In this document: piece by piece, positions 10,400 through 36,550 of the stretch
How the letters are laid out: each line of letters opens with the position of its first letter
Numbering within the stretch: the first letter of the stretch is position 1
Assembly: GCA_017512405.1 (NCBI GenBank)
Contig: JAFWGJ010000151.1
Coordinates: 1 to 43,190 of the forward strand
Reading direction: 5' to 3'
DNA length: 43,190 bases
DNA from: a bacterium
Lineage (GTDB): Bacteria > Cyanobacteriota > Vampirovibrionia > Gastranaerophilales > Gastranaerophilaceae
Program-made: the position numbers and the translations under genes
Notes under the pieces: generated by a model
Told to the model about the DNA's origin: nothing
Databases searched by the model: none
The model's input: only the letters and a program-made list of their open reading frames with translations

Positions 10400-11452
10400 T
10401 TAAAATTTTATATATCTTATGTCATCCTGTGCTTTTGCGTAATTTTGAGCATTGCCAATATCCAGCCAATATCCACGTATAGGGAAATGACTTATTTTTT
10501 TCCTTTTCTTTATCAGATTTTCCATTAAATCGGTAGAATCGTATTTTTCATTTTTTGGTATAAATTTTATGAGTTCTTTTTTCAAGAGATAAATTCCGGC
10601 ATTTGAATAATATGTGAAGGAAGGTTTTTCTATCAAAGAATTTATTTTTTTGTCCGTTGTATCAAGTATACCGTATGGGATGTTAATTCTTATATTAAAC
10701 GTCGCTACCGACATACTGTCATTATGATCTTTATAATTTATAAAGAAATCATAGAAATCAATATTGGTTAAAACATCTGCATTCATAACTAAAATGTCTT
10801 TATGTTCAAATTTTTCGACCAAAGATAGTGAGCCGATTGTTCCCAAAGGCTCATTTTCCTCAATGAAATGTATTTTTATATTTGTATACTTGTAATTTTT
10901 TTCAATGTAATTAATAATTTGTTCTTTTAAATGGTTTACTGAAATATAAAAATTTTTTACTCCAAATCGTATTAATCTATCAATATTATGTGCAATAATG
11001 GGTTTCCCTGCAAGTTCAAGCATAGGTTTTGGCGTATCATTTGTATAAGGTTTTAATCTTATACCTTTTCCACCAGCCATAATTACCGCATCAACAGGAA
11101 GCAATGCATCAATTTTCGTAAGATTTATCAATTCAATAAGTTGGAAATTTTTACTTACAACCGGAACAATTTTTAAACTATTTTTTTTATATTCATCGAA
11201 TTTTTTGTAATCAGAATAATTTAAAAGATATTTGAAATTTTTTTTCATAATACTTGTTATATTGTCATCAAGGGTATGACCTTTTAGTAATCCGCGTCTT
11301 ATATCTCCGTCAGTTAGAGAACCAATTATTCTGGCATTTTTATCAATAACGAACAAAATTAAGCACGCAGTATTTTTAGGAAAGTTGTTAATTTTTGATA
11401 AAGCATATCTTATGTTTTTATTGTCTTTAATGGTAAATTTTGCTTCGTTCAT
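10400..11452 (-). CDS. ptmE: PtmE-like CBS-domain sugar-1-phosphate nucleotidyltransferase
   Basis: Predicted to transfer GMP to a (N-acetyl)glucosamine 1-phosphate, the entry to GDP-linked legionaminic acid synthesis. The start is ATG at 11452 ('MNEAKF'); extra in-frame codons upstream run into the promoter region and the divergent gene. The first 115 residues form a CBS-pair region ('IGSLTDGDIRRGLL'). From about residue 120 there is a nucleotidyltransferase domain with 'AVIMAGGKGIRLKPYT', 'KPMLELAGKPI' and the acidic 'VMNADVLTN' block. A CBS module fused to this enzyme is the Campylobacter PtmE architecture. It heads a seven-gene minus-strand operon down to the algI-like gene. The base preference (GTP versus UTP) is inferred from that architecture. 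Confidence 0.8.
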   Translation of the reverse strand: MNEAKFTIKDNKNIRYALSKINNFPKNTACLILFVIDKNARIIGSLTDGDIRRGLLKGHTLDDNITSIMKKNFKYLLNYSDYKKFDEYKKNSLKIVPVVSKNFQLIELINLTKIDALLPVDAVIMAGGKGIRLKPYTNDTPKPMLELAGKPIIAHNIDRLIRFGVKNFYISVNHLKEQIINYIEKNYKYTNIKIHFIEENEPLGTIGSLSLVEKFEHKDILVMNADVLTNIDFYDFFINYKDHNDSMSVATFNIRINIPYGILDTTDKKINSLIEKPSFTYYSNAGIYLLKKELIKFIPKNEKYDSTDLMENLIKKRKKISHFPIRGYWLDIGNAQNYAKAQDDIRYIKF

Positions 11453-11453
11453 A

Positions 11454-11481
11454 TTGATAATATACCATGAACATGTATAAT
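11454..11481 (+). promoter_or_regulatory. Sigma-70-type promoter for the zinc-ribbon methyltransferase
   Basis: TTGATA (11454-11459), 16-base spacer, TATAAT (11476-11481), located 48 bases before the ATG at 11529. The 76-base divergent interval must also hold the ptmE promoter on the other strand, for which I see only A/T-rich -10-like matches. Confidence 0.65.
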
Positions 11482-11528
11482 GTAGAAACAAATAAGAGTT
11501 TTTATACCAAATAAAAAGGATTTTATAA

Positions 11529-12596
11529 ATGTCAAATAGCACAAAAAGCCGTTCTGAGAGGATGTATGAGGCATTATTAAATACTCATAAATACTTTTTT
11601 GATTATGATAAAGAAGAGCTGAAAGAAGAATTTGCCTGCCATCTCGCAGAATGTCCGGCATGTGGCTCAAAACGCATAAATAAATACTGGACAAAAGATT
11701 GGTTTAAAATTGACAGATGTCCGGATTGTGGTTTTGTATTTGTTAACCCCAGAATGAATGATAAAGCTACCTATGAGTTTTATAATCAAGAGTGGATAAA
11801 TATTTATAATGAAGGTAAATTTTATAATAAAAATGTATCCGATAAAAATGATGCTGACGTCATTGAAAATATAAAAATATTTGAACTTTTGTACAAACAT
11901 TTGGAACAAAAAGAAGGAAATATTATTGAAATAGGCCCGGGTGGAGTTGGTGCATTTTTAAATTGTGCAATGGAAAAAGGGTATGATGTTACCGGAGTGG
12001 AGCTCGGAGAAGAAAATTGTAATATATTGAGACAACTTTTGGGTGAAAAAGCCAATATAATTCAATCTACGCTGGAAGGTGCCAACCTTCCTTCAGATTA
12101 TTTTGTAGGTGGTTCTATGAGAGATGTTTTGGAACATATTCCTAACCCTAAAGATTTTTTGAAAGAACTTAACAGAATACTTAAATTGAACGCATATTTT
12201 ACAATTCAGGTTCCGAATGTTGCAGGACTTATTTATAAATTTGCAAAACAATCTCATACCGTGGTATTTCCGTTTGAACATCCGAATTATTGGAGCCCGA
12301 AGGCCCTGACAAAAATACTTAACGATACCGGATTCGCAGTTGAATCAATTGAACATTTTGCCGATGATTTTACGTTATCGTCTATAAATAATTATATGAA
12401 CGGAGAATCCACATTTACTACATGTTTTAAAAGAGAGCAGGATTCTGCGCAAAAATCAATGTACAAAAGAATTAGCAAACTGCTGAAAAACCGGTTTATA
12501 AAAAGTTTAGACGATAAATTTACTCCACAAATTGCCGAAAAACTCAAAAAAGGCAGCGTTATAAGAGTTTTAGCACGAAAAATTCAAAATATTTAA
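11529..12596 (+). CDS. Zinc-ribbon class I SAM methyltransferase, PtmH-like candidate
   Basis: A 355-residue methyltransferase with an N-terminal four-cysteine zinc ribbon: 'CPACGS' near residue 43 and 'CPDCGF' near 63, typical of sugar methyltransferases. The SAM-binding motif 'IIEIGPGGVGAFL' is at about 136-148 and the 'VLEHIPNPKDFLKELNRIL' post-core segment at 199-217. It is a single plus-strand gene between two minus-strand operons, driven by its own promoter. Its stop overlaps the stop region of the convergent GT2 gene by four bases. In Campylobacter, methylation of the N-acetimidoyl group of a legionaminic derivative is assigned to PtmH. Together with the amidotransferase at 21886, a similar role is possible here but unproven. 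Confidence 0.75.
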   Translation: MSNSTKSRSERMYEALLNTHKYFFDYDKEELKEEFACHLAECPACGSKRINKYWTKDWFKIDRCPDCGFVFVNPRMNDKATYEFYNQEWINIYNEGKFYNKNVSDKNDADVIENIKIFELLYKHLEQKEGNIIEIGPGGVGAFLNCAMEKGYDVTGVELGEENCNILRQLLGEKANIIQSTLEGANLPSDYFVGGSMRDVLEHIPNPKDFLKELNRILKLNAYFTIQVPNVAGLIYKFAKQSHTVVFPFEHPNYWSPKALTKILNDTGFAVESIEHFADDFTLSSINNYMNGESTFTTCFKREQDSAQKSMYKRISKLLKNRFIKSLDDKFTPQIAEKLKKGSVIRVLARKIQNI

Positions 12597-13531: not shown

Positions 13532-14438
13532 AATTTTTAAGTTCCTCTTCCAACATTTTTTTAATAATATCATTAAAAGATGTCTCGGGCAACCAGTCTA
13601 ATTCTTTTTTTATTTTTGAATTATCTCCAATCATAACAGGCTTTTTTCTTGTTATTAATGATTTATCTTCGATAATATATTTTTCCCAATCTAAGTCTAA
13701 TAAACTAAAAACTTGTTCAATCCAATCCTGAACTTTATGCAATTCTCCGGACGAAATCACATAGTCATAAGGTTTATCGGCAATAAGCATTCTGTAAAAT
13801 GCATCACAAAAATCAGGAGCATATCCCCAGTCTGTTTGAGCGTTTAAATCCCCAAGGATTAGTTTATCAGCTTCACCTTTTTTTATTTTAACGGCAGTTT
13901 GTATAATTTTTCTTGATAAAAAATTCGGAGAACGAAAATGTGATTCGTGATTAAATAAAATACCTGAACAAGCAAATAAATTATATTTTTCTCGGTACCA
14001 TTTTATAATATCCATACCTATTTTTTTGGTTATTCCATAATCGCAAATTGGATTTTTTTCAGAGTTTTCGTTTAATAATTCTTGTTTTGGCATTCCGTAG
14101 ATAAGTGATGAAGATGCATAAAAAACTCTTGTATCATGTGATACATTAACAAGAACTTCTAAAATGTTTTTTATATATTCAACATGTGTTTTAAAGCAAG
14201 CATAAAACTCTGTACCATCTTGTTCAACATTATTTCCTGACGAATGGTGGTGTGCTGCTAGATAATAAATTTGATTTATTTTATTTGCAGAAAAATATTC
14301 TGCCAAAAACTTCAAATCATACATTAAAAAAGGATCTTCTCTGGTTATACCGATAACCTCAAAATTTTTATTCTGTAAATATTTTGTTAATATTTTCCCG
14401 TCTTGTCCGTTTGAACCAATAATCAGAGCTTTTTTCAT
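13524..14438 (-). CDS. GDP-mannose 4,6-dehydratase-like SDR
   Basis: Extended SDR of 304 residues. It opens with 'ALIIGSNGQDGKIL', the GxxGQDG cofactor motif of GDP-mannose 4,6-dehydratases, and has 'YLAAHHHSSG' near 58. 'FYASSSLIYG' is followed by a 'YGITKKIG' Tyr/Lys pair. GMD-like blocks 'LFNHESHFRSPNFLSRKI' and 'LGDLNAQTDWGYAPDF' are clear. It is shorter than typical GMD (about 350 residues) and divergent between the motifs, so it may act on a different GDP-sugar or be a reductase/epimerase. A GDP-sugar enzyme fits the GDP-linked legionaminic acid route. It overlaps the upstream transferase gene by four bases (ATGA). Confidence 0.75.
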   Translation of the reverse strand: MKKALIIGSNGQDGKILTKYLQNKNFEVIGITREDPFLMYDLKFLAEYFSANKINQIYYLAAHHHSSGNNVEQDGTEFYACFKTHVEYIKNILEVLVNVSHDTRVFYASSSLIYGMPKQELLNENSEKNPICDYGITKKIGMDIIKWYREKYNLFACSGILFNHESHFRSPNFLSRKIIQTAVKIKKGEADKLILGDLNAQTDWGYAPDFCDAFYRMLIADKPYDYVISSGELHKVQDWIEQVFSLLDLDWEKYIIEDKSLITRKKPVMIGDNSKIKKELDWLPETSFNDIIKKMLEEELKNYD

Positions 14439-15847
14439 AAATTTTTCTCCATTAAAAAGTTAAGATGATTGAGTATTCTTTCGCCGGCTTTACCGTCTAA
14501 AACTCCCCAATCCTGACTTTTTTCTATCTGTTTTTGTTTTATTTCATTATAATAAGCGTCATCTGTTGTTAATTTTTTTAGTTGATTTTCAAATTCTTGT
14601 TTATTAATTGCTCTTACAATGCCTCCTATTTGATATTGAATATAGTTCATATTTTGAATATCAAAGTTTAATACAGGTATACCACAAGCAATTGCCCATT
14701 TCATTGATGAGGAAATATTTACAACAAATATATCAGCAAGTCCGACCATTTCAACGGTATGACCGTCATATATTTTAAAATTATCAGATTCGTATTTTTT
14801 CAATGATTCTATATCAAGAGACGGATGTGGACAGCCTATTACGTTACAATTGGTATTTTTTAGCGTTTTTGTCCAATATTCAAGAAGCTCATAATGGTTA
14901 TCGTGAAACTCATCCATTCCTGCCATTAGATATTTTGGTGGGATTGCCGTAACTATTAGTTTTTTATTTTTATCAAAATGATATTTTTCATATATTTGAT
15001 TTCTTAATTCATCTTTATTTTGAACAATATGATACAGTGTATCAATATTAAGATTGCCGAGAGTAAACAGTTTTTTCTTATCAAGTCCGGCATTAGCATA
15101 ATAATCATAGTATGCTTTTCCGTCCAAAATTATGCTGTCAATATATCCACTGTTAAATAACCATGGTTTTGGTGGTTCAATACCGTGCAGTTTATAATAA
15201 AGAATATAGCTGGCCGGCAGGCGTAAAACTTTTTTTCCTTTATAATTCCATACCCAATTCGGGAATAAAAGTCCGGCAATTCTGTTAAGAAAATATTTCA
15301 TTGAATGGGTTTCTTTTGTTACAAAAAAATCTACGTCATCGCCGTTTGACATTGCTATTGTAACAGTAGAAGTTTTTATACCGTACCTGTGAGCCTCTTG
15401 TATACATACAGCTGTATCGTGTCCCGGAATATCACAACCCAGCATAACCAAATTCGGCTTAACCTCGTTTAATATTTTTCTAGTTACAAATTTTCTGAAT
15501 TGAAATCTTTGTTTTATATCACTCCAATTGTTTACGGGATTATTTTTAAAATCAACAAATCTTCTTTTTAATGTTTGTTTTACTTTCTTAGGTTCATTTT
15601 GCCCGGTCGTGTGTTGAATAATCTCAACATCATCAAGATTTGTTATTTTATTGCCCTTTTTATCATATATGTCAATATTAATTTTCAAACATTGTTCTAT
15701 ACAGGGAACCATTGATGAATCTATATAACAGGCAAATTGAATTATGGGAATTATATTATTTCCAAGACAAAGCTTTATTATACCCAATTGCTCGGTAAAA
15801 AAAGTTGACATATGGCATATAAATAAAATTTTCTTTTTCCCTGTCAT
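14435..15847 (-). CDS. GT-B-fold glycan transferase with HP and Ser-rich motifs, unassigned
   Basis: A 470-residue protein without a family I can name securely. The N terminus ('KKILFICHMSTF') and the C-terminal half look like a GT-B fold related to UDP-GlcNAc 2-epimerase, CDP-glycerol transferases and bacterial sialyltransferases. Near residue 337 it has 'VIGCPHPSLD' (H341-P342), and near 378 'ISSSMKWAIACGIPVLNFD', where a Ser cluster precedes a helix. Such HP and Ser motifs bind the nucleotide in CMP-sialic-acid transferases. It lies between the GMD-like gene and a radical SAM gene in the legI operon. It could be a second transferase for the CMP-nonulosonate or a sugar-phosphate transferase. 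Confidence 0.55.
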   Translation of the reverse strand: MTGKKKILFICHMSTFFTEQLGIIKLCLGNNIIPIIQFACYIDSSMVPCIEQCLKINIDIYDKKGNKITNLDDVEIIQHTTGQNEPKKVKQTLKRRFVDFKNNPVNNWSDIKQRFQFRKFVTRKILNEVKPNLVMLGCDIPGHDTAVCIQEAHRYGIKTSTVTIAMSNGDDVDFFVTKETHSMKYFLNRIAGLLFPNWVWNYKGKKVLRLPASYILYYKLHGIEPPKPWLFNSGYIDSIILDGKAYYDYYANAGLDKKKLFTLGNLNIDTLYHIVQNKDELRNQIYEKYHFDKNKKLIVTAIPPKYLMAGMDEFHDNHYELLEYWTKTLKNTNCNVIGCPHPSLDIESLKKYESDNFKIYDGHTVEMVGLADIFVVNISSSMKWAIACGIPVLNFDIQNMNYIQYQIGGIVRAINKQEFENQLKKLTTDDAYYNEIKQKQIEKSQDWGVLDGKAGERILNHLNFLMEKNL

Positions 15848-16909: not shown

Positions 16910-16919
16910 GCGTTATCCT

Positions 16920-18149: not shown

Positions 18150-18199
18150 AAATAACCTTTTTATTGATGTCTTAGTTAATATTATCACGAATATTGTGT

Positions 18200-19309
18200 T
18201 CAAATATCATAAAATTTTTTTTGTAAATTAATATTAAAATCCTTTAAAATTTTTAGAATGTTATTAGCAGTGTCATCTTTTTCATATGGGTTTTTAGTAT
18301 TAGTAAAATCTTCAGTAAAAGCTTTTTTTATAGCATTTAAAATATCTGACTTTTCTGATTTACAATTTATTATAGATTTAGCCTGAATACGTCCTTTTTG
18401 TCGATTTCCGATATTTACAGTTGCAATTCCGAAAGATGGAACTTCTAATATTCCGCTTGAAGAATTGCCCACAACTGCATCAACGAATTGTATTGTCGAA
18501 AGATACTTTTTCATTCCTAGAGATTTGTACGTTTTTACATTATTATGCGTATTTTCAAAATCTTTTATTAAATTGAAAATGTCAATATTTCCTTCGTCAG
18601 AATTAGGACTTGTTATTATAATGTTCGTTTTTTCTAATTCGTCAAGTGCTTTTAATAATTCCTCAAATTGTTCTTTTGAATTACCTTCTAATGTGACTGG
18701 ATGAAACGTTACAAGCAGATTGTGATTATTAAATTTAAAATCCAAAGATTTTTCCAGCTCTTCTTTGCTCATCAAAGGAACAGTTTTTATGTTTTCAACA
18801 CCTAATGAACCTACATTAAAAACATTTTGTGGATTTTCACCCAGCTGAATTACGCGTTTACGGTATTCCTCACAGCTGGTAAAGTGTAAGTGGCTCATTT
18901 TTGTAATGGAATGTCTTATTGCTTCGTCAATAGCACCTTCAGTTGTTTCTCCGCCATGAATGTGTGCTATTGGAATATTGTTTAACATTGCTGACTGAGC
19001 AACACCCATAATTTCGTATCTGTCGCCTAAAAGTACAACAATATCAGGTTTTAGTTGCTTAAAAATTTTTGAGAACTTTTTTATTGCCTGTGCAAGGGCG
19101 TGTGCCGGTGATTTTTCTATTTCTATATCAACGGTTTTCGTTATAGGCTGTGTAATTTCATCAATTGTATGTCCGAATTTTTCTGACAAGTGCATACCGG
19201 TTGCAATTAATTGAAGTTCTAAATCTTTATCTTGGTAAATTTTTTCAATTAATCTGCTCATTATACCGTATTCGGCTCTAGTTGATGTTACTACACAAAT
19301 CTTTCGCAT
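18200..19309 (-). CDS. legG: Hydrolysing NDP-sugar 2-epimerase, LegG/NeuC type
   Basis: Converts the NDP-linked 2,4-diacetamido-2,4,6-trideoxyglucose to free 2,4-diacetamido-6-deoxymannose, releasing the nucleotide, just before the LegI condensation. The 369-residue length fits NeuC/LegG. It has 'CVVTSTRAEYGIMSRLI' at residues 4-20, 'VVLLGDRYEIMG' with the Asp-Arg pair near 96, 'HIHGGETTEGAIDEAIRH' near 117 and 'VVGNSSSGILEVPSFGI' near 280; these are family motifs lining the nucleotide pocket. The gene lies 5 bases after the B12-type radical SAM gene. LegG rather than NeuC is inferred from the co-located legB, legC and legH. GDP-sugar specificity would match PtmE. Confidence 0.87.
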   Translation of the reverse strand: MRKICVVTSTRAEYGIMSRLIEKIYQDKDLELQLIATGMHLSEKFGHTIDEITQPITKTVDIEIEKSPAHALAQAIKKFSKIFKQLKPDIVVLLGDRYEIMGVAQSAMLNNIPIAHIHGGETTEGAIDEAIRHSITKMSHLHFTSCEEYRKRVIQLGENPQNVFNVGSLGVENIKTVPLMSKEELEKSLDFKFNNHNLLVTFHPVTLEGNSKEQFEELLKALDELEKTNIIITSPNSDEGNIDIFNLIKDFENTHNNVKTYKSLGMKKYLSTIQFVDAVVGNSSSGILEVPSFGIATVNIGNRQKGRIQAKSIINCKSEKSDILNAIKKAFTEDFTNTKNPYEKDDTANNILKILKDFNINLQKKFYDI

Positions 19310-19314
19310 AAACC

Positions 19315-21772: not shown

Positions 21773-21837
21773 GTTTATTATGTTATCACAAAATCAAATT
21801 AAAATTTTATAAAGAATACTGTTTGTAAAAAAAAATG

Positions 21838-21846
21838 TGCTATATT
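21838..21846 (+). promoter_or_regulatory. Extended -10 promoter for the sugar amidotransferase gene
   Basis: TGCTATATT (TGn plus -10-like hexamer) 40 bases before the probable start, with no well-spaced -35. An extended -10 of this kind can work without one. The 107-base interval is shared with the divergent legI promoter. Confidence 0.35.
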
Positions 21847-21885
21847 TATTTTGTAATCTGCAAAAGAATAGTGAGGTTAATGATT

Positions 21886-23067: not shown

Positions 23068-23102
23068 TAAAACCCGTATGCTTATAACATACGGGTTTTA
23101 TT
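23068..23102. terminator. Bidirectional terminator shared by amidotransferase and AlgJ-like copy B
   Basis: Hairpin AAAACCCGTATG / CATACGGGTTTT around a seven-base loop, with A and T runs on both sides. It lies 22 bases after the plus-strand stop and overlaps the stop codon of the minus-strand AlgJ-like gene, so it can serve both. Confidence 0.85.
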
Positions 23103-25191: not shown

Positions 25192-25770
25192 TTATTTAAC
25201 TAAGCTCCCTGCTTTTATAAATGCTTTTGAAGGTAATTTTACGCATTGAACGATTGTTGTGTTTGCACCGACAAATGAGTTTTCGCCTATTTCAACTTCG
25301 CCTGCGATTACAGCTCCTACTGCAATATGGCAATTATCTTTTATTATACATTCGTGTTCTATTAATGCTTTAGTATTTATAATACAGTTTTTGCCAATCT
25401 TAGCACCTGCGTTAATAAGCACATCGTGCATTACAATTGTTCCCTCTTCAATGCAGGCATGCTTTGATACGTATGCTCTTGGAGAAATAACCGTTGCAAA
25501 TTTTCCCCCTGCATTTTTGACCTTTTCATACAACTTAATTCTCAAATCGGCAGATTTGATTTGTCCGACGGTTATGAGAAAGTAATATCCCTGCTTTGCA
25601 TAGCTTCCGATATCATTATCGGTGCCGATAATTTTGTATCCCAAAACTTCTGTTCCTACTTTATCAGGAGTATCAAGAATTCCTGCAATCTCAAAATCTT
25701 TTACCCCTTCTATAACGTCAATGCAGCTTTTGCAATGTCCGCCGCCGCCGATTAAGATAAGTTTTTCCAT
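25192..25770 (-). CDS. legH: PglD/NeuD-type N-acetyltransferase, LegH
   Basis: Predicted to N-acetylate the 4-amino group of the NDP-4-amino-6-deoxy sugar made by LegC, giving the diacetamido intermediate. 192 residues, the usual PglD/LegH size. The N-terminal Rossmann-like segment is 'LILIGGGGHCKSCIDVI' at 4-20. Hexapeptide repeats run from about 100 ('AYVSKHACIEEGTIVMHDVL', 'IGKNCIINTKALIEHECIIKD', 'IAVGAVIAGEVEIGENSFVGANTT'), with the active-site His expected in 'IEHECII'. Its start overlaps the legC stop by one base (TAATG). It is the last gene of the AlgJ-legB-legC-legH operon. Confidence 0.85.
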   Translation of the reverse strand: MEKLILIGGGGHCKSCIDVIEGVKDFEIAGILDTPDKVGTEVLGYKIIGTDNDIGSYAKQGYYFLITVGQIKSADLRIKLYEKVKNAGGKFATVISPRAYVSKHACIEEGTIVMHDVLINAGAKIGKNCIINTKALIEHECIIKDNCHIAVGAVIAGEVEIGENSFVGANTTIVQCVKLPSKAFIKAGSLVK

Positions 25771-26894
25771 TATTTAAACTCCTTAATCGTTTTTATAACT
25801 CGCATTACATCGTCTTCTGTTAAATTAGTTGAGCAAGGTATATTTACAACTTTTTCATAATAGTCAATAGCTTTTTCAATTTTATAGCATTGACTACCTT
25901 CATAAGGTTTTAGTGTGTGAATAAGTTTCCATATAGGGCGGGTTTGGATTTTGTTTTCCGTCATATATTTAATCAGGTCATCACGTCTGTCCGTAACAAG
26001 CGAATAGAACCAATGATTAGTTCTTATCTTATCGCTGAAACCTAAAAGATTTAAACCGTTTTCGATATATAATTCGTAATTTTTCTTCTTTATTCCAACA
26101 AATTTTTCTAACTGTTCAAGTTGTGCAACACCAAGTGCTGCCTGAAGGTTCGTCATCCTATAATTGTAACCGATTTCATCATGTACAAAATATACCGCAT
26201 CGGCTTTTGCCTGAGTTGATAAATGTTTTGCGTGCTTTACATCTTCAATATTTTTAGCGGTTAAAGCTCCGCCTCCGCCTGTTGTAATTATTTTGTTTCC
26301 GTTAAACGAATATACGCCAAAATCACCAATTGTGCCTGCAAATTTTCCGTTGCTTAAACAATATGTGCCGAGTGCTTCTGTTGCATCTTCTATAAGTTTT
26401 AATTTATATTTTTCTGCTAATTCGCAAAGCAATTCAATATTACCAATATTCCCGAATACGTGAACAACAACTATTGCTTTAATTTGACGTTTTGTAGATT
26501 TATTAATAACTTTTTCGCCGTCAAAATCACATTCTTCTTCCAAAAACTGCTGAACTTTTTCGGCATCCATACATAAACTGTCATCACAATCCATGAAAAT
26601 CGGTTCTGCATAACAGTATTTAACGGGGTTTACTGCAGCTGCAAAGGTCAAAGTCGGAACTATAACTTCTGTATTCGGTTCAACACCTGACAATTTCATT
26701 GCCAAATGCAATCCTGCAGTACCACTTTGTAATGCACAAACCTGTTCTGTTTTTAGGTAGCCGGCAAGATTTTCTTCCAGTTTACTGATTAATTCACCAC
26801 CGGTTGAAACCCACTCAGTCTTTACTGCTTCTGTAACGTATTCAAGTTCGTTTCCCGAAAAATTCGGTACTGATAAAGGTATAAACTTAGACAT
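25770..26894 (-). CDS. legC: PLP-dependent sugar aminotransferase, LegC
   Basis: DegT/DnrJ/EryC1-family aminotransferase that adds the C4 amino group to the NDP-4-keto-6-deoxy sugar from LegB, using glutamate. 374 residues, typical length. Marks: 'TEWVSTGGELISKLEENL' near residue 30, 'ALQSGTAGLHLAMKL' near 54, 'VPTLTFAAAVNPVKYC' near 80, 'IEDATEALGT' near 167 and the PLP-lysine loop 'GVYSFNGNKIITTGGGG' near 192-208. 'GYNYRMTNLQAALGVAQLEQL' and the C-terminal 'NIPCSTNLTEDDV' also match the LegC branch. It overlaps legB by eight bases and legH by one, indicating tight translational coupling. Confidence 0.92.
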   Translation of the reverse strand: MSKFIPLSVPNFSGNELEYVTEAVKTEWVSTGGELISKLEENLAGYLKTEQVCALQSGTAGLHLAMKLSGVEPNTEVIVPTLTFAAAVNPVKYCYAEPIFMDCDDSLCMDAEKVQQFLEEECDFDGEKVINKSTKRQIKAIVVVHVFGNIGNIELLCELAEKYKLKLIEDATEALGTYCLSNGKFAGTIGDFGVYSFNGNKIITTGGGGALTAKNIEDVKHAKHLSTQAKADAVYFVHDEIGYNYRMTNLQAALGVAQLEQLEKFVGIKKKNYELYIENGLNLLGFSDKIRTNHWFYSLVTDRRDDLIKYMTENKIQTRPIWKLIHTLKPYEGSQCYKIEKAIDYYEKVVNIPCSTNLTEDDVMRVIKTIKEFK

Positions 26895-29234: not shown

Positions 29235-29261
29235 ATAAAAAATATAACATAAATAATCAAC

Positions 29262-30590
29262 TTAATCTTTAAAAAAATAAGGTAAGGTAGAAAGATTATT
29301 GTAGGTTACGCAAAAAATCAAAATGTTCGGTTTATATTCAAGAATATCTTTTTTATGGTATTTCATTATTTTAGTTGATTCTGTTTGAGAAATACCTTTT
29401 ACATTATTTGTTCTTATACGTTTTACGTTCTTAAATGTGAATGGAATAAATTCCGTTAAATTTTCGTTTTGGCTTGTGCCAAGAAGTATAACTTTGTAAT
29501 TTGCTCCTTTTGGGTAAAAATAATCTTTTTCTCTGTGCAGGTTTATGTCTGTTATTGTGGTTTTCAAAGCATTAAAATTTTTGTGCTTGTAATAACGATA
29601 TTTTGTGGTGTGGTATTTGTCTAAATTAAAAATGCCAAGTTTTGTTGCGGTTCTGCCGTATCCGAATTTTCTGTCCCAGTCTGTTCTTATAAGATTATTC
29701 TCTAAATATTCAAAATCATTGGGAGTTAAAACGTTAATGTTAGTAAAATCTTTTTGTATTGCATCCATCAGAACTTTATATCCTGTATAAGCGCCGTCAT
29801 CTGTCCAGTGATCGTCAGTTTTGAAGTAAATGTAATTGTTTTTTGCATTTTCTTTAAACTCATTAATAGGATAAAATATTTTTAAATCGGTATTTTTTTG
29901 CAATTGCTGAATATATTTTTCAAAAGGTGTGTTATCTTTTATTGCTATTATTGAAGATTTAGGTTTATAAATATCTTCTTTGGGTGGAGTTATAAGAACA
30001 TAAAGCTTGATATTGTTTTGTTTGCAAAAATTATTTAATTCAATCAGCGGTTTTAAATTATTTTGCACTTCCTTTGATGAATATCTGTAAAAATTCCTGT
30101 AATAATAGATAAAGCCTGATTCTTTATCTATAAAACCGTCTTGTTTTATTTCAACGTCTTTGTTTGTTGATATTTTTAGATAACTGTTAAGTGCAATAAG
30201 TTTGTTTCTGAAATTAAAGTGGTCATTAAACCAGTCGTTAAAATTTTTGCCGAAGTCGTAATTTATTTTACCCTGTTTCGTAAAAATCGGTTTTAATTTT
30301 GCAAGAGTACGGTTTTCTTGTTCCGATATTTCGCTGTTATCAATATTGCTCATTGGAATAAATAAAACAATAAAAAATATTATCAAAAATAATATTTCCG
30401 CTACGGATTTGTTTTTTACGGATTTAAAATCAGCTAAATAATTTGATATTTTATAAAATAGCAAAAATGATAAAACACTTATTGAGATAAATAGATAAAA
30501 ATTAAAAGTATTTGCGGATAACCAAAATTTATGCGTTAAAAAGGCACTAATTACGGTTAAAAACATTGAAATTACTGTTCGCTTTTTCAT
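29262..30590 (-). CDS. AlgJ/AlgX-like SGNH O-acetyltransferase, short form (copy D)
   Basis: A 442-residue paralogue of copy C with the same start ('MKKRTVIS'), three early hydrophobic helices and 'FNDWFNDHFNFR' at 117-128. The acid-His block is 'KTDDHWTDDGAY' (D259, H261), so the catalytic pair is kept. The Ser block is 'LLGTSQNEN' (S373), in which Asp of GDS is Thr, as also varies in copies A and B. It heads the minus-strand operon that continues through copy C to legB-legC-legH and is divergent from the plus-strand glycosyltransferase operon. Together with copy C it may acetylate different positions or sugars. Confidence 0.8.
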   Translation of the reverse strand: MKKRTVISMFLTVISAFLTHKFWLSANTFNFYLFISISVLSFLLFYKISNYLADFKSVKNKSVAEILFLIIFFIVLFIPMSNIDNSEISEQENRTLAKLKPIFTKQGKINYDFGKNFNDWFNDHFNFRNKLIALNSYLKISTNKDVEIKQDGFIDKESGFIYYYRNFYRYSSKEVQNNLKPLIELNNFCKQNNIKLYVLITPPKEDIYKPKSSIIAIKDNTPFEKYIQQLQKNTDLKIFYPINEFKENAKNNYIYFKTDDHWTDDGAYTGYKVLMDAIQKDFTNINVLTPNDFEYLENNLIRTDWDRKFGYGRTATKLGIFNLDKYHTTKYRYYKHKNFNALKTTITDINLHREKDYFYPKGANYKVILLGTSQNENLTEFIPFTFKNVKRIRTNNVKGISQTESTKIMKYHKKDILEYKPNILIFCVTYNNLSTLPYFFKD

Positions 30591-30682: not shown

Positions 30683-31555
30683 ATGGCAAAAGTATCAATA
30701 GTAGTACCGGTATATAATACAGAAAAATTTCTTGAAAAGTGCTTGAATTCTTTGATTGGACAGACTTTGCAAGATATAGAGATTATCTGTGTAAATGATG
30801 GCTCGACGGATAATTCTTTGAATATCTTGACGGACTATGCAAACAAAGATTCAAGAATAAAAATTGTAAATCAGGAAAATAAAATGCAAGGTGCAGCAAG
30901 AAACGCAGGCACCGCTGTTGCAGTCGGCGAATATATCGGTTTTGTTGATTCTGATGACTGGGTTGATTTGGATTATTACGAAAAATTATATAATACTGCA
31001 AAAAAATACGATATGGATATTGCTCTTGCAACAAATGTGAGAGTGAAAAATGATACTGAAAAAAAACGTTTAAATATTACGGAAGAAAAAGTTTATAACT
31101 CTTTACAAGAAAAAATTGATGTTTGTGAACAGTGGAAAAATGAATGTCCTACAAATAAAATCTATCGTATGTCTATGCTTAGAAATAATCATATTATATG
31201 GCCGGAAATGATGTATTGTGAAGACAAATTGTTTACAATGAAGGCTATTTATTATGCAAATGGCATTGTAACTGTTCCGAATACTTATTATTACTATTAC
31301 TGGAATCCAAAATCTACGGTTAATTTCTCGTTGAAAGCTCACCATTCAAGATACTTACGCCATAAAAATATTGCACGTCAGAGAGTTTTGAATTTTCTAA
31401 AATCAAAAAATGCAGAAATAAGGGACAAAGATTTTTGGGCAATTAGAAAAGATTTTAAAATTTTTAATATTGTAATGTTCAGAATAAAAGAAAGTTTGCA
31501 TACAGAAAAAGGTTTATTGTTTGGGTTTATACCTCTTTGGCAAAAAGGGGTCTGA
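30683..31555 (+). CDS. Family 2 glycosyltransferase
   Basis: GT-A fold glycosyltransferase of 290 residues. The N-terminal domain is textbook GT2: 'SIVVPVYNTEKFLEKCLNSL' at 5-24, 'DIEIICVNDGSTDNS' at 31-45, 'NQENKMQGAARNAG' near 63 and the metal-binding 'GFVDSDDWVDLDYYEKL' near 86-102 with DSDD. The C-terminal half ('WPEMMYCEDKLFTMKAIYYA') resembles acceptor-binding sequence of capsule GT2 enzymes. It has no membrane helix. It heads the plus-strand operon and its stop touches the ATG of the next GT2 gene (TGAATG). Confidence 0.88.
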   Translation: MAKVSIVVPVYNTEKFLEKCLNSLIGQTLQDIEIICVNDGSTDNSLNILTDYANKDSRIKIVNQENKMQGAARNAGTAVAVGEYIGFVDSDDWVDLDYYEKLYNTAKKYDMDIALATNVRVKNDTEKKRLNITEEKVYNSLQEKIDVCEQWKNECPTNKIYRMSMLRNNHIIWPEMMYCEDKLFTMKAIYYANGIVTVPNTYYYYYWNPKSTVNFSLKAHHSRYLRHKNIARQRVLNFLKSKNAEIRDKDFWAIRKDFKIFNIVMFRIKESLHTEKGLLFGFIPLWQKGV

Positions 31556-32476
31556 ATGACTAAGTTATCCATTGTATTACCTGTGTATAATGTGGAAAAA
31601 TATCTGAAAGAAACTTTAAATTGTCTTGTTAATCAAACTTTTTCAGATATAGAAATTATTTGTATAAATGATTGTTCAAAAGATAATTCACGCAGTATTT
31701 TAACTGATTTTGCAAGTAAAGATAAAAGAGTGAAAATTATTGATAATGAGCAAAATTCGGGCGCGGCAGTATCTCGAAATAAAGGTCTTGATATTGCAAC
31801 CGGAGAATATGTGTTGTTTTTGGATTCTGATGATATCTTTGAACGTAATTTGGCGGAATCTGTTATAAAGGCCGCCGATGAAAACAACTCAGATATTGTT
31901 ATTTACAATTACGATACAACAACCGGCAATAAAAAAATTAATTTTAAAAAAAATAAAAAACTAATTGATAAAAAGTTTTTTTCATATAAAGATATCCCCG
32001 ACAGAATATTCAATATAATTCCGCCAAATGCTTTTTCTAAATTATACAGAAGAAAATTTTTACAAGAAAATAATTTAAGATTTCAATCTTTAAAATCATG
32101 TAACGATAGCTATTTTGCACTGGCGAGTTTAATTTTGGCAAAACAAATTTCTTTGTTGGATAAAGTTCTTTTGCATTATCGCATCAATGCAACCGGTAAT
32201 ATATCTTCTTCCCGTGGCGTGCATTATAAAAATATTATAAGTGTAATGAAAAGTTTAAAATCATTTTTAGAAGAAAATAGTGTTTATAATGAAGTTGAGA
32301 AATCTTTTATTAAAGCATTCAGAAATCATTTGAGATACGAGTTTAAATTTGTTTCAAAAGAAAATAAAATGGATTTTATCGAATTTTGTAAGTCCGAATT
32401 GGGTAATGATTGGAAAAATTATGAAATAATTACAAAACCCGTAATATTTCAAAAATTTGTAATGTTCTTTAATTAG
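31556..32476 (+). CDS. Family 2 glycosyltransferase
   Basis: A second GT2 enzyme, 306 residues, starting directly at the stop of the first. Motifs: 'SIVLPVYNVEKYLKETLNCLV' at 4-24, 'EIICINDCSKDNSRSIL' near 33, 'NSGAAVSRNKGLDIATGEYV' near 64 and 'FLDSDDIFERN' near 86-96. The two enzymes share the same layout but differ widely in their C-terminal halves, so they likely use different acceptors or linkages. The C-terminal region here is lysine/phenylalanine-rich and probably peripheral to the membrane. It is followed after 46 bases by the wecC-like gene with its own ribosome site. Confidence 0.88.
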   Translation: MTKLSIVLPVYNVEKYLKETLNCLVNQTFSDIEIICINDCSKDNSRSILTDFASKDKRVKIIDNEQNSGAAVSRNKGLDIATGEYVLFLDSDDIFERNLAESVIKAADENNSDIVIYNYDTTTGNKKINFKKNKKLIDKKFFSYKDIPDRIFNIIPPNAFSKLYRRKFLQENNLRFQSLKSCNDSYFALASLILAKQISLLDKVLLHYRINATGNISSSRGVHYKNIISVMKSLKSFLEENSVYNEVEKSFIKAFRNHLRYEFKFVSKENKMDFIEFCKSELGNDWKNYEIITKPVIFQKFVMFFN

Positions 32477-32522
32477 TTGCTAATAACATTTATTAGTGAT
32501 ATAAATTATGTAGGTGGATAAA

Positions 32523-33761
32523 ATGAAAAAAATATCAATTGTAGGGTTAGGTTATATAGGTATTCCAACATCAGTGTTCTTTGCAAGAAGCGGTGTTGAA
32601 GTAGTTGGTATAGATGTTAACGAGAAACAGGTTGAAAGACTAAATCGTGGTGAAATAGGTATAGTTGAACCGGGTTTAGCAGAAATGGTTAAAGATGTTG
32701 TTGATAAAAAAATGTTCAGAGCAACTTTAACACCCGAGCCTGTAGATGCATTCATAATTTCAGTGCCTACTCCGTTTAAAGATAATTATGAACCTGATTT
32801 GTCATATATACAATCAGCTGCTAAAAACATTGCTCCCGTATTGCAAAAGGGTAATTTAATTGTATTGGAATCAACATCACCGGTAGGAGCAACCGAACAG
32901 TTGGCGAAATGGCTTCAAGAAAGTCGTTCGGATTTAAAAATAGCTGTTGAAGATGACGAAAATTGCGATGTCTATGTTGCATATTGCCCTGAGAGAATGA
33001 TTCCTGGTAATGTGTTTGAACTTATTGAAAATGACAGAATTTTAGGCGGTATAAATAATGTTTCAACCCAAAAAGCAAAAGAATTATATTCAAAAATTGC
33101 AAAAGGCGAATTGATTTTAACTAATGCAAGAACCGCAGAAATGTCGAAACTTACAGAAAACTCTTTCAGAGACGTAAATATAGCCTTTGCAAACGAGTTG
33201 TCAATGATTTGCGATAAATTGAATATTAATGTTCAAGAGCTGATTAGCCTTGCTAATCACCACCCGAGAGTAAATATTTTACAGCCGGGTTGCGGTGTAG
33301 GCGGACACTGTATAGCTGTTGACCCTTGGTTTATTGTTAATAAAACTCCTGATGAAGCTAAATTAATAAGACAAGCAAGAGAAGTTAATGATTACAAGCC
33401 TAAATTTGTGATTAAAAAAGTTGAAAAAGCAATAAAAGAATTGGGAAAAGATAATCCCTCAATTACGTGTTTCGGGCTTGCTTTCAAACCTAATATTGAT
33501 GATTTGAGAGAATCTCCCGCTTTAAAAATAACACAACAACTTGCAGAGAAATATAATAATGTTTTTGCTGTTGAACCAAATATTAATGTTTTGCCTGAAA
33601 AACTTGCAGATAAAAATATTAAACTCATCGATTTGGCAACAGGTTTAAAATCTGATATATTATTAATGTTAGTAGAACATAAAGAATTTAAAGCAATAAA
33701 CCCCAAATTATCTAAAAACCAAAGGTTAGTTGATACAAGAGGAATTTGGCAAAATGCATGA
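32523..33761 (+). CDS. UDP-N-acetyl-mannosamine dehydrogenase-like (WecC type)
   Basis: NAD-dependent nucleotide-sugar 6-dehydrogenase making a uronic acid. 412 residues from ATG at 32523, which follows AGGTGG; a GTG nine bases upstream lies on top of that site and is unlikely. 'ISIVGLGYIGIPTSVFFA' is the cofactor loop, 'SVPTPFK' near 79, 'LESTSPVGATEQLAKWL' near 118, 'YCPERMIPGNVFELIENDRILGG' near 155 and the catalytic Cys in 'GCGVGGHCIAVDPWFI' near 257-272. The SPVG/ATEQ and PGN-x-END forms match WecC better than UDP-glucose dehydrogenase. No WecB (non-hydrolysing 2-epimerase) is present, so the substrate may come from elsewhere or be UDP-GlcNAc. It overlaps the next gene by eight bases. 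Confidence 0.88.
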   Translation: MKKISIVGLGYIGIPTSVFFARSGVEVVGIDVNEKQVERLNRGEIGIVEPGLAEMVKDVVDKKMFRATLTPEPVDAFIISVPTPFKDNYEPDLSYIQSAAKNIAPVLQKGNLIVLESTSPVGATEQLAKWLQESRSDLKIAVEDDENCDVYVAYCPERMIPGNVFELIENDRILGGINNVSTQKAKELYSKIAKGELILTNARTAEMSKLTENSFRDVNIAFANELSMICDKLNINVQELISLANHHPRVNILQPGCGVGGHCIAVDPWFIVNKTPDEAKLIRQAREVNDYKPKFVIKKVEKAIKELGKDNPSITCFGLAFKPNIDDLRESPALKITQQLAEKYNNVFAVEPNINVLPEKLADKNIKLIDLATGLKSDILLMLVEHKEFKAINPKLSKNQRLVDTRGIWQNA

Positions 33762-35331
33762 AAAAGATATTGAAACAAAAATGTATGCCGAATTAGGCGA
33801 AGTGGTTTTTAAAAGTGGTTTTTTAACAAGAAATATTTTTAAACCTTGGAATTTTGTGAAATTTATACTGAATTATAAAAAGGGAATGAAAAAAATATAT
33901 CCTAATTTGGCAGCTTATATTGATAACTATGAAGACGAAACCTTATCAAAAGTAGCTGATATTCTTCTAAACATAAAAAAATATTGGCTTAATAAAAAAG
34001 AAACGTTTATTGTTAATAATCAATTATATAAAAAAAATATGTTGGAAGGTATTAAATTTAATGAACAATATGCTTTTGAACCTGTAAAAAACAGAATATG
34101 TTATTGTTTAAATCATTCTTTGCCTTATAGAGGTGACGGATATGTTACAAGAAGTCAACATATGGCACATGCGATGCAGGAAGCAGGATTTGAAGTTATT
34201 GCAATAACTCGTCCGGGATTTCCTTGGGATAATATCAAGAAACTTAAACACTGCAAAAATTTACCTATGGAAGAACAAATTAACGGTATTAAGTATAAAA
34301 GGCAATATTTAAGTCTAGATAAATTAAAATCAGAGCAGTACATGAAAATAGTTGCGGAAGAATGGAAAAAAACCTTTCTTGAACTTAAGCCAGAGTATGT
34401 AATTGCTGCATCAAATAATTTCAATGCGATACCTGCCCTTTCGGCTGCCAGAGAATTAGGGGTTCCTTTTTATTATGAAGTCAGAGGTTTATGGGAAGTT
34501 ACGAAATTATCCAAATATCCCGAGTGGGAAAATTCTGTGGACTGCTTTTTTGAAAAATATTACGAGGCAAGGATTTGCAAAGAAGTTGACGGTGTTTTTA
34601 CTCTAACGACTCCGATAATTGATGAATTAGAAAGCCGTGGAGTTGACAGGAACAAAGTTCATTTATGTCCTAATTGTGCAAATGTATCTCTGTTTAATCC
34701 GACAGGACGAGATGCAAAATTGGCAAAAAAACTAAAAATTCCTGATAATGTTGTTACAATAGGATATTTGGGTACTCTTCAGATGTATGAAGGACTTGAT
34801 GATTTAATGCAAGCCTGTGCAATTCTAAAAAATAAGGGCATAGATTTTAGGCTGCTTCTGGTAGGAGGCATTGCAAATATTGACAGAACTAACTATAAAA
34901 AATATCTGGAAAATGTTGCAAGAAAAGTCGGTATAAAAGATAAATTGATTATGCCGGGCAAAGTTCCACCTACAGAAGTTCCGAAGTATTATTCACTTAT
35001 GGATATAACACCATTCGGCAGAAAATCTTTACCTGTTTGTGAAATGGTTTCTCCTATAAAGCCTTTGGAGGCTATGGCTATGGAAAAAACTGTTGTTGTA
35101 TCCGATTTAGCAGCATTAAAGGAAATTGTTCAGGATAATGAAACGGGATTATATTTTGAAAAAGGAAATATTGAATCTTATGCCGAAACTTTAGAAAAAG
35201 CTATAAAGGATAAGGACCTAAGAGAACGTCTTGGTAAAAATGCACGTAAGTGGATTGTGGAAAATCGTCAATGGATTCAAAATGCCGAAACGATTAAAAA
35301 AGTTATGACCAAAGAAACTGTTAACGTTTAA
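33754..35331 (+). CDS. Family 4 glycosyltransferase with N-terminal extension
   Basis: A 525-residue GT-B transferase. The start is ATG 33754, overlapping the dehydrogenase stop (ATGCATGA). Residues 1-110 form a helical, lysine-rich extension not typical of GT4. The catalytic part begins near 112 with 'NRICYCLNHSLPYRGDGYVTRSQH', where the glycine-containing loop and 'HMAHAM' fit the acceptor domain. The C-terminal nucleotide domain has 'IGYLGTLQMYEGLDDLMQA' near 340, 'FRLLLVGGI' and the E-x7-E block 'EMVSPIKPLEAMAMEKTVVVS' with donor-binding glutamates. Retaining chemistry is expected for GT4. The extension could bind a membrane or partner. Confidence 0.85.
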   Translation: MHEKDIETKMYAELGEVVFKSGFLTRNIFKPWNFVKFILNYKKGMKKIYPNLAAYIDNYEDETLSKVADILLNIKKYWLNKKETFIVNNQLYKKNMLEGIKFNEQYAFEPVKNRICYCLNHSLPYRGDGYVTRSQHMAHAMQEAGFEVIAITRPGFPWDNIKKLKHCKNLPMEEQINGIKYKRQYLSLDKLKSEQYMKIVAEEWKKTFLELKPEYVIAASNNFNAIPALSAARELGVPFYYEVRGLWEVTKLSKYPEWENSVDCFFEKYYEARICKEVDGVFTLTTPIIDELESRGVDRNKVHLCPNCANVSLFNPTGRDAKLAKKLKIPDNVVTIGYLGTLQMYEGLDDLMQACAILKNKGIDFRLLLVGGIANIDRTNYKKYLENVARKVGIKDKLIMPGKVPPTEVPKYYSLMDITPFGRKSLPVCEMVSPIKPLEAMAMEKTVVVSDLAALKEIVQDNETGLYFEKGNIESYAETLEKAIKDKDLRERLGKNARKWIVENRQWIQNAETIKKVMTKETVNV

Positions 35332-35347: not shown

Positions 35348-36550
35348 ATGAAAAAGAAAAAAATACTTTTGCAATGTCAAGGAATCGCATATTATTATAT
35401 GGGGCTTGCTGCGATTTATACAAAATATCCGGACAGAAATGTTGATATTGATGTAGCGTTTTCAAGTTCAAAAGTTGATATGGATTTTAAGCCGTTTACG
35501 GATAAAATAGAACAAAGTAAATATGTAAACAATGTTTTTTCAATAAGATTTGTAAGACCGTATTTGTATGACAGATTGGCAAGTGTTCCCAAAAATTTCG
35601 GTACATATCTTAAATATCGTTTTAGATATAAACGGGATATTATAAAAAAAACAAAAGAACAATTAAGCTTTTATAAAACCAAGTATTCGGAAATCTTTTT
35701 TAGCCATGAACAGGGAAGCATGCTTATTACATCTCTGAAATTTCTGTATCCAAAGGCTAAATTTATTGCATACGGAGATGGTGCAGGACTAATTTCCGGC
35801 AGAAAATTTTTAATAACCGATAAAAAAGTCAATGATTATATCTTTTTTAAAGAAATAATTCCTGATGAAATAATTGCTCTGACGGTTTATATGCTTGACG
35901 ATTCGCTGGATATCGGAGAAATTCCGATATCCGGAACGGACAAAGATACTTATGCAGATTTAGTAAAAAATGACGAACTTATACAAAAAGAAGTTAACGA
36001 TTATGCAGACGGCATATTAAGTAAATATGATAACAGGCAGATAACCATATTAATGACCGATAATCTCAGTTGGTATCTGTACAACATGAGTGAAGATGAG
36101 CAAATAAATATTTACGTTGATATTATTGAAAGATACTGCTCTGATAACGGTGTAGTTATACTTAAAACTCATCCTTCAAATGATGAATTATTTATACAAA
36201 ATATAAAATCAAGATGCAGAAAAAATATTGAAATAATGGAAATGCCCAAGACATTAAAGAAGTATCCTATAGAAATTTTTTATAAACTGTTAAAAAATAC
36301 GGAGAATATTGTTACATTCCTTTCTTCTGCAAAAGTGGCATTAAAATGCATATATGACGTAGATTGTATTGATGCATACGATGTAATTCAAAAATATCCA
36401 CTGAAAAATTATGCAAATATTATATTAAATGCATACCAAAATATTTGCGATAGAATATCATGTTGGGATAAAAGGTCAATTATTTATGAAGAAAATATTA
36501 ATCCTAAATTGACAGAGATATATGAAAAATATACTAAAGTAAGTGATTAA
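35348..36550 (+). CDS. Sialyltransferase/polysialyltransferase-like protein, candidate nonulosonate transferase
   Basis: A 400-residue protein whose motifs fit bacterial CMP-nonulosonate transferases (GT38/GT52/GT80-like GT-B proteins). 'AYGDGAG' at 141-147 matches the (D/E)(D/E)G catalytic motif with Asp144 as possible general base. 'LKTHPSND' at 272-279 supplies the HP motif (H275-P276) that holds CMP, and 'FLSSAKVALK' at 324-333 the Ser pair that binds phosphate. Order and spacing (motifs about 130 and 50 residues apart) are as in those families. It is the last gene of the plus-strand operon, 16 bases after the GT4 gene. CMP-legionaminic acid made in this locus is the natural donor. The exact family and the acceptor are unknown. 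Confidence 0.68.
   Translation: MKKKKILLQCQGIAYYYMGLAAIYTKYPDRNVDIDVAFSSSKVDMDFKPFTDKIEQSKYVNNVFSIRFVRPYLYDRLASVPKNFGTYLKYRFRYKRDIIKKTKEQLSFYKTKYSEIFFSHEQGSMLITSLKFLYPKAKFIAYGDGAGLISGRKFLITDKKVNDYIFFKEIIPDEIIALTVYMLDDSLDIGEIPISGTDKDTYADLVKNDELIQKEVNDYADGILSKYDNRQITILMTDNLSWYLYNMSEDEQINIYVDIIERYCSDNGVVILKTHPSNDELFIQNIKSRCRKNIEIMEMPKTLKKYPIEIFYKLLKNTENIVTFLSSAKVALKCIYDVDCIDAYDVIQKYPLKNYANIILNAYQNICDRISCWDKRSIIYEENINPKLTEIYEKYTKVSD

What the first reader, a model, noticed from the sequence alone, without database searches (positions are those of the whole stretch)
35348..36550. Candidate legionaminic acid transferase with sialyltransferase-like motifs
The protein carries GDG, HP and Ser-Ser motifs in the order and spacing of bacterial sialyltransferases, and ends an operon beside a CMP-legionaminic acid locus. 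Few CMP-legionaminic acid transferases are known, so this may be a new GT family member.
Basis: partly seen in the sequence, partly recalled or inferred. Interest (0 to 1): 0.7.

Follow-up and report, generated by a model that had tools for sequence, protein, structure and literature searches.

The report
Probable nonulosonic acid (sialic-acid-like) transferase
This gut-bacterium gene most likely encodes an enzyme that attaches a sialic-acid-like sugar, probably legionaminic acid, to a surface glycan; it resembles the bacterial polysialyltransferases only distantly, and since very few enzymes of this job are known it is a good bench candidate, although which sugar it uses is not shown.

Summary
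The set is well above chance (0 of 20,000 shuffles). Pfam places the C-terminal half just over the cut-off of PF07388, the GT38-type polysialyltransferase family. Profile comparison links P0001 to NulO-associated PF07388 proteins (95%, E 2e-8), not to two other GT-B control sets. Two AlphaFold models (low confidence) both retrieve the GT38 crystal structure first in the PDB.

The best new evidence is genomic. The only close relative found in the sampled genomes (43% identical) overlaps the stop codon of a pseudaminic acid synthase gene, and PF07388 genes in this bacterial family sit within 5 kb of a NulO synthase in 7 genomes (0.2 expected). So a CMP-nonulosonate transferase is well supported. 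Legionaminic acid as donor is likely, but rests on the neighbouring Leg locus and elimination. The relative is a Pse case, and rival transferases exist in the window and genome. It works like GT38 but lacks the first acidic residue of the D/E-D/E-G motif.

The parts
35348..36550 (+). P0001, 400 aa, candidate CMP-nonulosonate (probably CMP-Leg) transferase, GT-B, PF07388-like
35774..35782 (+). GDG, residues 143-145; Asp144 is the predicted catalytic base (position of MhPST E153)
36164..36175 (+). KTHP, residues 273-276; His275 predicted to stabilise the CMP leaving group (MhPST H291)
36266..36274 (+).
36323..36328 (+). SS, residues 326-327; predicted phosphate ligands (MhPST S339/T340)
30683..31555 (+). 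GT2 glycosyltransferase, first gene of the operon that ends with P0001
   Evidence: PF00535, 6.3e-40
31556..32476 (+). GT2 glycosyltransferase
   Evidence: PF00535, 1.3e-40
32514..33761 (+). UDP-N-acetyl-D-mannosamine dehydrogenase (makes UDP-ManNAcA, possible acceptor sugar)
   Evidence: NF008286, 611 bits, cut-off 459
33730..35331 (+). GT4 glycosyltransferase directly upstream of P0001
26887..27909 (-). LegB 4,6-dehydratase
   Evidence: TIGR04180, 525.5 bits, cut-off 475
25770..26894 (-). LegC aminotransferase
   Evidence: TIGR04181, 446.9 bits, cut-off 420
25192..25770 (-). NeuD/LegH-type acetyltransferase
   Evidence: TIGR03570, 182 bits
20780..21772 (-). NeuB/LegI-type synthase
   Evidence: TIGR03569, 520 bits, cut-off 400; PseI below cut-off
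18200..19309 (-). NeuC/LegG-type UDP-sugar 2-epimerase
   Evidence: TIGR03568, 461.7 bits
7414..8172 (-). CMP-nonulosonate cytidylyltransferase (LegF candidate)
   Evidence: PF02348 6.8e-12; PseF model 2.3e-18, below cut-off
10400..11542 (-). PtmE-like sugar-1-phosphate nucleotidylyltransferase
   Evidence: PF00483, 3.4e-36; PtmE name is inference
14435..15847 (-). P0002, 470 aa, second protein with HP and SSS motifs, inside the Leg cluster; rival Leg transferase

Best explanation
P0001 is a metal-independent, inverting GT-B glycosyltransferase that takes a nonulosonic acid from its CMP-activated form, most likely CMP-legionaminic acid or a modified Leg made by the divergent cluster next door, and adds it to the glycan built by the GT2/GT4 enzymes of its own operon, possibly next to a ManNAcA residue. 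By analogy with M. haemolytica polysialyltransferase, Asp144 deprotonates the acceptor hydroxyl, His275 and Ser326/Ser327 hold the CMP phosphate and Glu309 holds the ribose. Shown: the gene, the motifs, the PF07388 link, the gene order, and the co-localisation of relatives with NulO synthases. Inferred: the reaction, the donor, the acceptor and the linkage.
For: PF07388 (A-2_8-polyST) is the only Pfam match, 24.2 bits against a cut-off of 23.3; E. coli K1 NeuS scores 152 bits as positive control. hhalign of P0001 and its relative against 13 PF07388 proteins of the same bacterial family: 95.3%, E 2.3e-8; controls: another HP-containing GT-B group 0.4%, NeuC 0.2%. G145, K273, H275, P276, P307, E309 and S326 are invariant over 15 proteins. 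Spacing is like MhPST: base to His 131 vs 138, His to Glu 34 vs 32, His to Ser 51 vs 48. Foldseek top hit for P0001 is MhPST 5wcn/5wc6, E 4e-8, and for the relative's model 5wc6, E 4e-7; GT52 and GT80 sialyltransferases are also in P0001's list. The relative's start codon overlaps the stop of PseI (486.6 bits, cut-off 340), and that genome has PseF and PseC. PF07388 genes lie within 5 kb of NeuB-family genes in 7 genomes against 0.2 expected, max 4 in 20,000 simulations, with three kinds of synthase: Neu-type with NeuDAC, PseI, and a short NeuB. Leg donor: full Leg gene set starting 2.8 kb upstream of the operon on the other strand; own genome has only two strong NeuB-family synthases, the window's and one next to a KDN-9-phosphatase-like gene, neither PseI by the curated cut-off.
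Against: The PF07388 score barely passes and covers only residues 225-338; no sequence-level hit to any solved structure. Direct hhalign to NeuS alone is not significant (2%, E 0.024). AlphaFold models are poor (pLDDT 52 and 55.5, TM-scores to MhPST about 0.3-0.4). The first acidic residue of D/E-D/E-G is Gly in P0001 and its relative. The closest relative sits with PseI, not LegI. P0001 is not inside the Leg gene row but on the opposite strand. The random-placement null for gene co-localisation ignores that glycan genes cluster anyway, and one of the seven (G326) is an atypical protein.
Confidence: 0.58

Rival explanations
1. P0001 is a CMP-nonulosonate transferase, but its donor is not legionaminic acid: it uses the product of the genome's second NeuB-type synthase (Kdn or Neu-like), CMP-Kdo, or pseudaminic acid.
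For: The relative (43%) is in operon with a PseI gene. The own genome has a second NeuB-like synthase with a KDN-9-phosphatase-like neighbour, a further CMP-sugar synthetase and KdsB. PF07388 relatives pair with at least three synthase types, so donor use seems to change within the family.
Against: The Leg cluster is the only nonulosonate cluster adjacent to P0001. No PseI equivalog among the strong NeuB-family matches of the (92% complete) genome. A NeuB of the second type is found in many relatives that lack a P0001-like gene.
Confidence: 0.22
2. Leg from this locus is transferred by another protein: P0002 (14435-15847, inside the Leg cluster, with HP and SSS motifs) or one of the two Maf/MptE-like proteins, and P0001 is a transferase for a different sugar.
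For: P0002 is embedded in the Leg gene row and has HP and SSS motifs. Two PF01973 proteins of 580 and 647 aa are in the genome. Maf4 is the putative legionaminyltransferase of C. jejuni (PMC9298399).
Against: P0002 has no significant link to PF07388 or to P0001 and no relative in 239 genomes of the family, so nothing ties it to nonulosonates except position. The two Maf-like genes lie in surroundings without nonulosonate genes in the 3.5 kb seen. More than one NulO transferase per genome is possible.
Confidence: 0.14
3. P0001 is an ordinary GT-B enzyme for a UDP- or GDP-sugar, and the HP and SS motifs are shared GT-B features.
For: Weak PF07388 score; many non-sialyl GT-B enzymes also appear in the fold lists; HP is also found in beta-Kdo transferases (PMC5517516).
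Against: Control GT-B sets do not align with it; the four motifs and spacing fit the CMP-binding enzymes; the relative is co-operonic with PseI.
Confidence: 0.06

Closest known systems
GT38 bacterial polysialyltransferases (MhPST/SiaD 5WC6, 5WCN; E. coli K1 NeuS), Pfam PF07388
   Same: Pfam PF07388 match, best fold hit, KxHP, PxE (ribose Glu) and SS at similar spacing, acidic base before the Gly of the first motif
   Different: First motif is GDG, not D/E-D/E-G; Pfam similarity only in the C-terminal half; no sign of polymerising activity; different neighbouring nonulosonate pathway
PF07388 proteins beside NeuD-NeuB-NeuA-NeuC or short NeuB genes in other genomes of the same bacterial family (L063-L067)
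   Same: Same motif columns, same host family, NulO synthase neighbours
   Different: About 16% identity, D/E-D/E-G intact, often tandem copies with poly-G/C tracts
GT52 (N. meningitidis LST, 2YK7) and GT80 (PmST1-type) sialyltransferases
   Same: GT-B fold and analogous DG, HP, SS/ST motifs; appear in the fold list of P0001
   Different: No Pfam match to their families; weaker fold scores than GT38
Maf flagellin nonulosonate transferases (C. jejuni Maf4)
   Same: Proposed to use CMP-Leg
   Different: Different family (PF01973), acceptor is flagellin; no similarity to P0001 found
GT118 KpsS1 retaining pseudaminyltransferase and TagB-domain NulO transferases of Tannerella
   Same: Move Leg/Pse from CMP donors; in T. 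forsythia the NulO sits on ManNAcA, and P0001's operon encodes a UDP-ManNAc dehydrogenase
   Different: Other families; no Pfam match of P0001 to them

Membership tests
GT38 / PF07388 polysialyltransferases | Score over Pfam PF07388 gathering cut-off | tested here: met
   24.2 vs 23.3 bits, residues 225-338 only; 31.9 bits in the genome search
GT38 / PF07388 polysialyltransferases | D/E-D/E-G motif with two acidic residues | tested here: not met
   GDG in P0001 and relative; only the base position (Asp144) is acidic. MhPST E152A is a 300-fold worse catalyst (PMC5517516)
GT38 / PF07388 polysialyltransferases | HP motif, ribose-binding Glu, Ser/Thr phosphate ligands | tested here: met
   H275-P276, E309, S326-S327 in alignment columns invariant or nearly so; correspondence to MhPST H291/E323/S339 by family alignment and spacing
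GT38 / PF07388 polysialyltransferases | GT-B fold closest to MhPST | tested here: inconclusive
   MhPST is top hit for two models but pLDDT is 52-55 and TM-score 0.3-0.4
GT38 / PF07388 polysialyltransferases | Alpha-2,8-polymerisation of Neu5Ac from CMP-Neu5Ac | not testable with these tools
   needs enzyme assay
GT52 / GT80 sialyltransferases | Match to their Pfam families or closest fold | tested here: not met
   only PF07388 found up to E 10; 2yk7 and 4r9v/4v39 rank below GT38
Kdo/KpsS-type (GT99, GT107, GT118) transferases | Match to capsule-synthesis Pfam families | tested here: not met
   no match up to E 10; direct profile comparison not run
Maf flagellin transferases | PF01973 domain | tested here: not met
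   no match in P0001
Legionaminyltransferase (function) | CMP-Leg pathway encoded in the same genome and near the gene | tested here: met
Legionaminyltransferase (function) | Conserved association of the subfamily with Leg rather than other nonulosonates | tested here: not met
   the only close relative is paired with PseI
Legionaminyltransferase (function) | Transfer of Leg from CMP-Leg | not testable with these tools
   needs enzyme assay
GT97 / GT100 sialyltransferases | Sequence relation to these CAZy families | not tested

The most novel reading that the evidence does not exclude
P0001 and its red-deer relative define a separate 'GDG' subfamily of the GT38-like fold that has moved from Neu5Ac to di-amino nonulosonates, with one member specific for CMP-Leg and one for CMP-Pse, which would be the first GT38-like legionaminyl- and pseudaminyltransferases.
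Probability: 0.3. Interest if true: 0.6.

Novelty: new member of a known kind. Interest (0 to 1): 0.45.

Why it matters
[quoted passage not shown] P0001 and its 43% identical relative, one beside a Leg cluster and one in operon with PseI, are a ready-made pair for finding what decides Leg versus Pse use. It also points to nonulosonate-decorated surfaces in Gastranaerophilales, uncultured gut relatives of cyanobacteria, on which my searches of the held library found no dedicated paper.

Tried and rejected
No hit to solved structures by sequence with P0001 or its pair profile, and none convincing with the 15-protein profile; weak G-protein hits of the A2 profile judged chance. No relatives in plasmids, phages or viral contigs. 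NCBIfam has no model for P0001. Weak 'relatives' in G037, G296 and others were partial, out-of-family or wrong-frame matches and dropped. The PF07922 (GT52) search of the own genome was empty but its control rang nowhere, so it proves nothing. A Maf-type flagellin role for P0001 was rejected for lack of any PF01973 match. Terminator and promoter scans gave no more than chance.

Full report
Observation. The ORF at 35348-36550 (+) is open, 400 aa, and follows the GT4 gene by 16 bases with an AGGG before its ATG. A fourth motif, PIE 307-309, is also present. Shuffling the protein gives the three-motif pattern 23 times in 20,000 and the four-motif pattern never.

Family. hmmscan of Pfam finds one family up to E 10, PF07388, the bacterial alpha-2,8-polysialyltransferases: E 2.9e-5, 24.2 bits, cut-off 23.3, residues 225-338. 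E. coli K1 NeuS (from the UTI89 record), used as control, scores 152 bits in the same search and finds M. haemolytica SiaD (5wcn, 5wc6) at 1.6e-38 in the PDB. P0001 itself finds nothing in the PDB by sequence. The profile of P0001 and its relative aligns with 13 PF07388 proteins of the same bacterial family at 95.3% probability, E 2.3e-8, with GDG over the DEG/EDG column, HP over HP, PxE over PxE and SS over SS. Two negative controls, a second HP-containing GT-B group and NeuC, give 0.4% and 0.2%. Direct comparison with the single NeuS sequence is not significant.

Mechanistic residues. In MhPST the catalytic base is E153 of a D/E-D/E-G motif, H291 of HP stabilises the leaving group, E323 binds the ribose and S339/T340 the phosphate (PMC5517516). 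P0001 offers D144, H275, E309 and S326/S327 at like spacing. The residue before the base, acidic in the 13 PF07388 relatives and worth 300-fold in MhPST, is Gly143 in P0001 and Gly in its relative. Since a tested defining feature is not met, I do not file P0001 in GT38; I say that it works like GT38.

Fold. AlphaFold with two sequences gave pLDDT 52, pTM 0.45 for P0001 and 55.5, 0.57 for the relative. These are poor models, yet both retrieve the GT38 crystal structure first among 350,542 chains (E 4e-8 and 4e-7), followed by other GT-B enzymes, with GT52 and GT80 sialyltransferases also in P0001's list. In both models the HP, PxE and SS residues sit at strand-to-helix turns of a Rossmann-like C-terminal domain.

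Relatives and their neighbours. The host belongs to the same family as Candidatus Gastranaerophilales: the relative's contig, from a genome of the same family, is named so. One close relative exists among the sampled genomes (382 of the class; 383 of the family; 386 of the phylum; the samples overlap). Its start codon overlaps the stop of a PseI gene scoring 486.6 bits against a cut-off of 340, in a genome that has PseF and PseC on another contig. More widely, PF07388 genes of this bacterial family lie within 5 kb of a NeuB-family gene in 7 genomes; random placement gives 0.2 on average and at most 4 in 20,000 trials. The null ignores general clustering of glycan genes, and one of the seven (G326) is an atypical protein; but three cases are immediate neighbours (G278, G057, G022), and three lie in NeuD-NeuB-NeuA-NeuC gene rows. 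The partner synthases are of at least three sorts, so the donor is not fixed within the family.

Donor. The window holds LegB, LegC, NeuD/LegH, NeuC/LegG, NeuB/LegI, a CMP-transferase and PtmA/PtmE-like genes. The own genome has one other strong NeuB-type synthase, next to a KDN-9-phosphatase-like gene, and no PseI equivalog among these. CMP-Leg, perhaps methylated, amidated or acetylated by the other cluster genes, is therefore the likeliest donor, by neighbourhood and elimination. The operon's UDP-ManNAc dehydrogenase suggests ManNAcA in the acceptor glycan; in Tannerella the NulO sits on a ManNAcA residue (PMC6388019). That is an analogy, not evidence.

Rivals. P0002 (14435-15847), inside the Leg gene row, has HP and SSS motifs, no Pfam family, no detected relation to PF07388 and no relative in 239 genomes. 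The genome also has two Maf/MptE-like proteins. Either could be the legionaminyltransferase, or they may act on other acceptors.

Verdict. A CMP-nonulosonate transferase: about 0.8 over all readings. A CMP-legionaminate transferase: a little under 0.6. Known kind, divergent member, in a field with very few characterised legionaminyltransferases (PMC11356810, PMC9298399).

Noticed in passing
L065 (G329:C9:28000-46000), L066 (G195:C4:64000-83955), L067 (G065:C24:1-15000): Tandem PF07388 genes beside NeuD-NeuB-NeuA-NeuC carry poly-G/C tracts of 8-15 bases in 30% GC DNA (4-6 tracts per locus, under 0.1 expected). Two tracts (L065 11446-11454; L066 6785-6796) lie where a PF07388 ORF is split into two frames. 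This looks like phase-variable nonulosonate transferase arrays in gut Gastranaerophilales; no paper in the held library joins the two terms.
   Followed up: partly
window 14435-15847 (-): P0002, 470 aa, without any family, with HP and SSS motifs inside the Leg cluster: a second candidate nonulosonate transferase.
   Followed up: partly
window 15860-20715 (-): Between NeuB and P0002 the Leg cluster holds a B12-type radical SAM protein (19315-20715), a C-methyltransferase (16920-18203) and a SPASM radical SAM protein (15860-16909): the nonulosonate may be unusually C-methylated or otherwise modified.
   Followed up: no
window 4268-7407, 23098-24858, 27918-30590 (-): An MBOAT protein and four AlgX/DHHW-like SGNH proteins in one cluster: probably O-acetylation of the glycan.
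   Followed up: no
window 21835-23046 (+): WbuX-type N-acetyl sugar amidotransferase on the opposite strand inside the Leg cluster, which suggests an acetamidino group on the sugar.
   Followed up: no
L063 6324-8601, L064 6071-8333: A short NeuB-like synthase (295-299 aa, below the NeuB and PseI cut-offs) overlaps or adjoins a PF07388 gene in two genomes: a two-gene synthase-transferase unit of unknown sugar.
   Followed up: no
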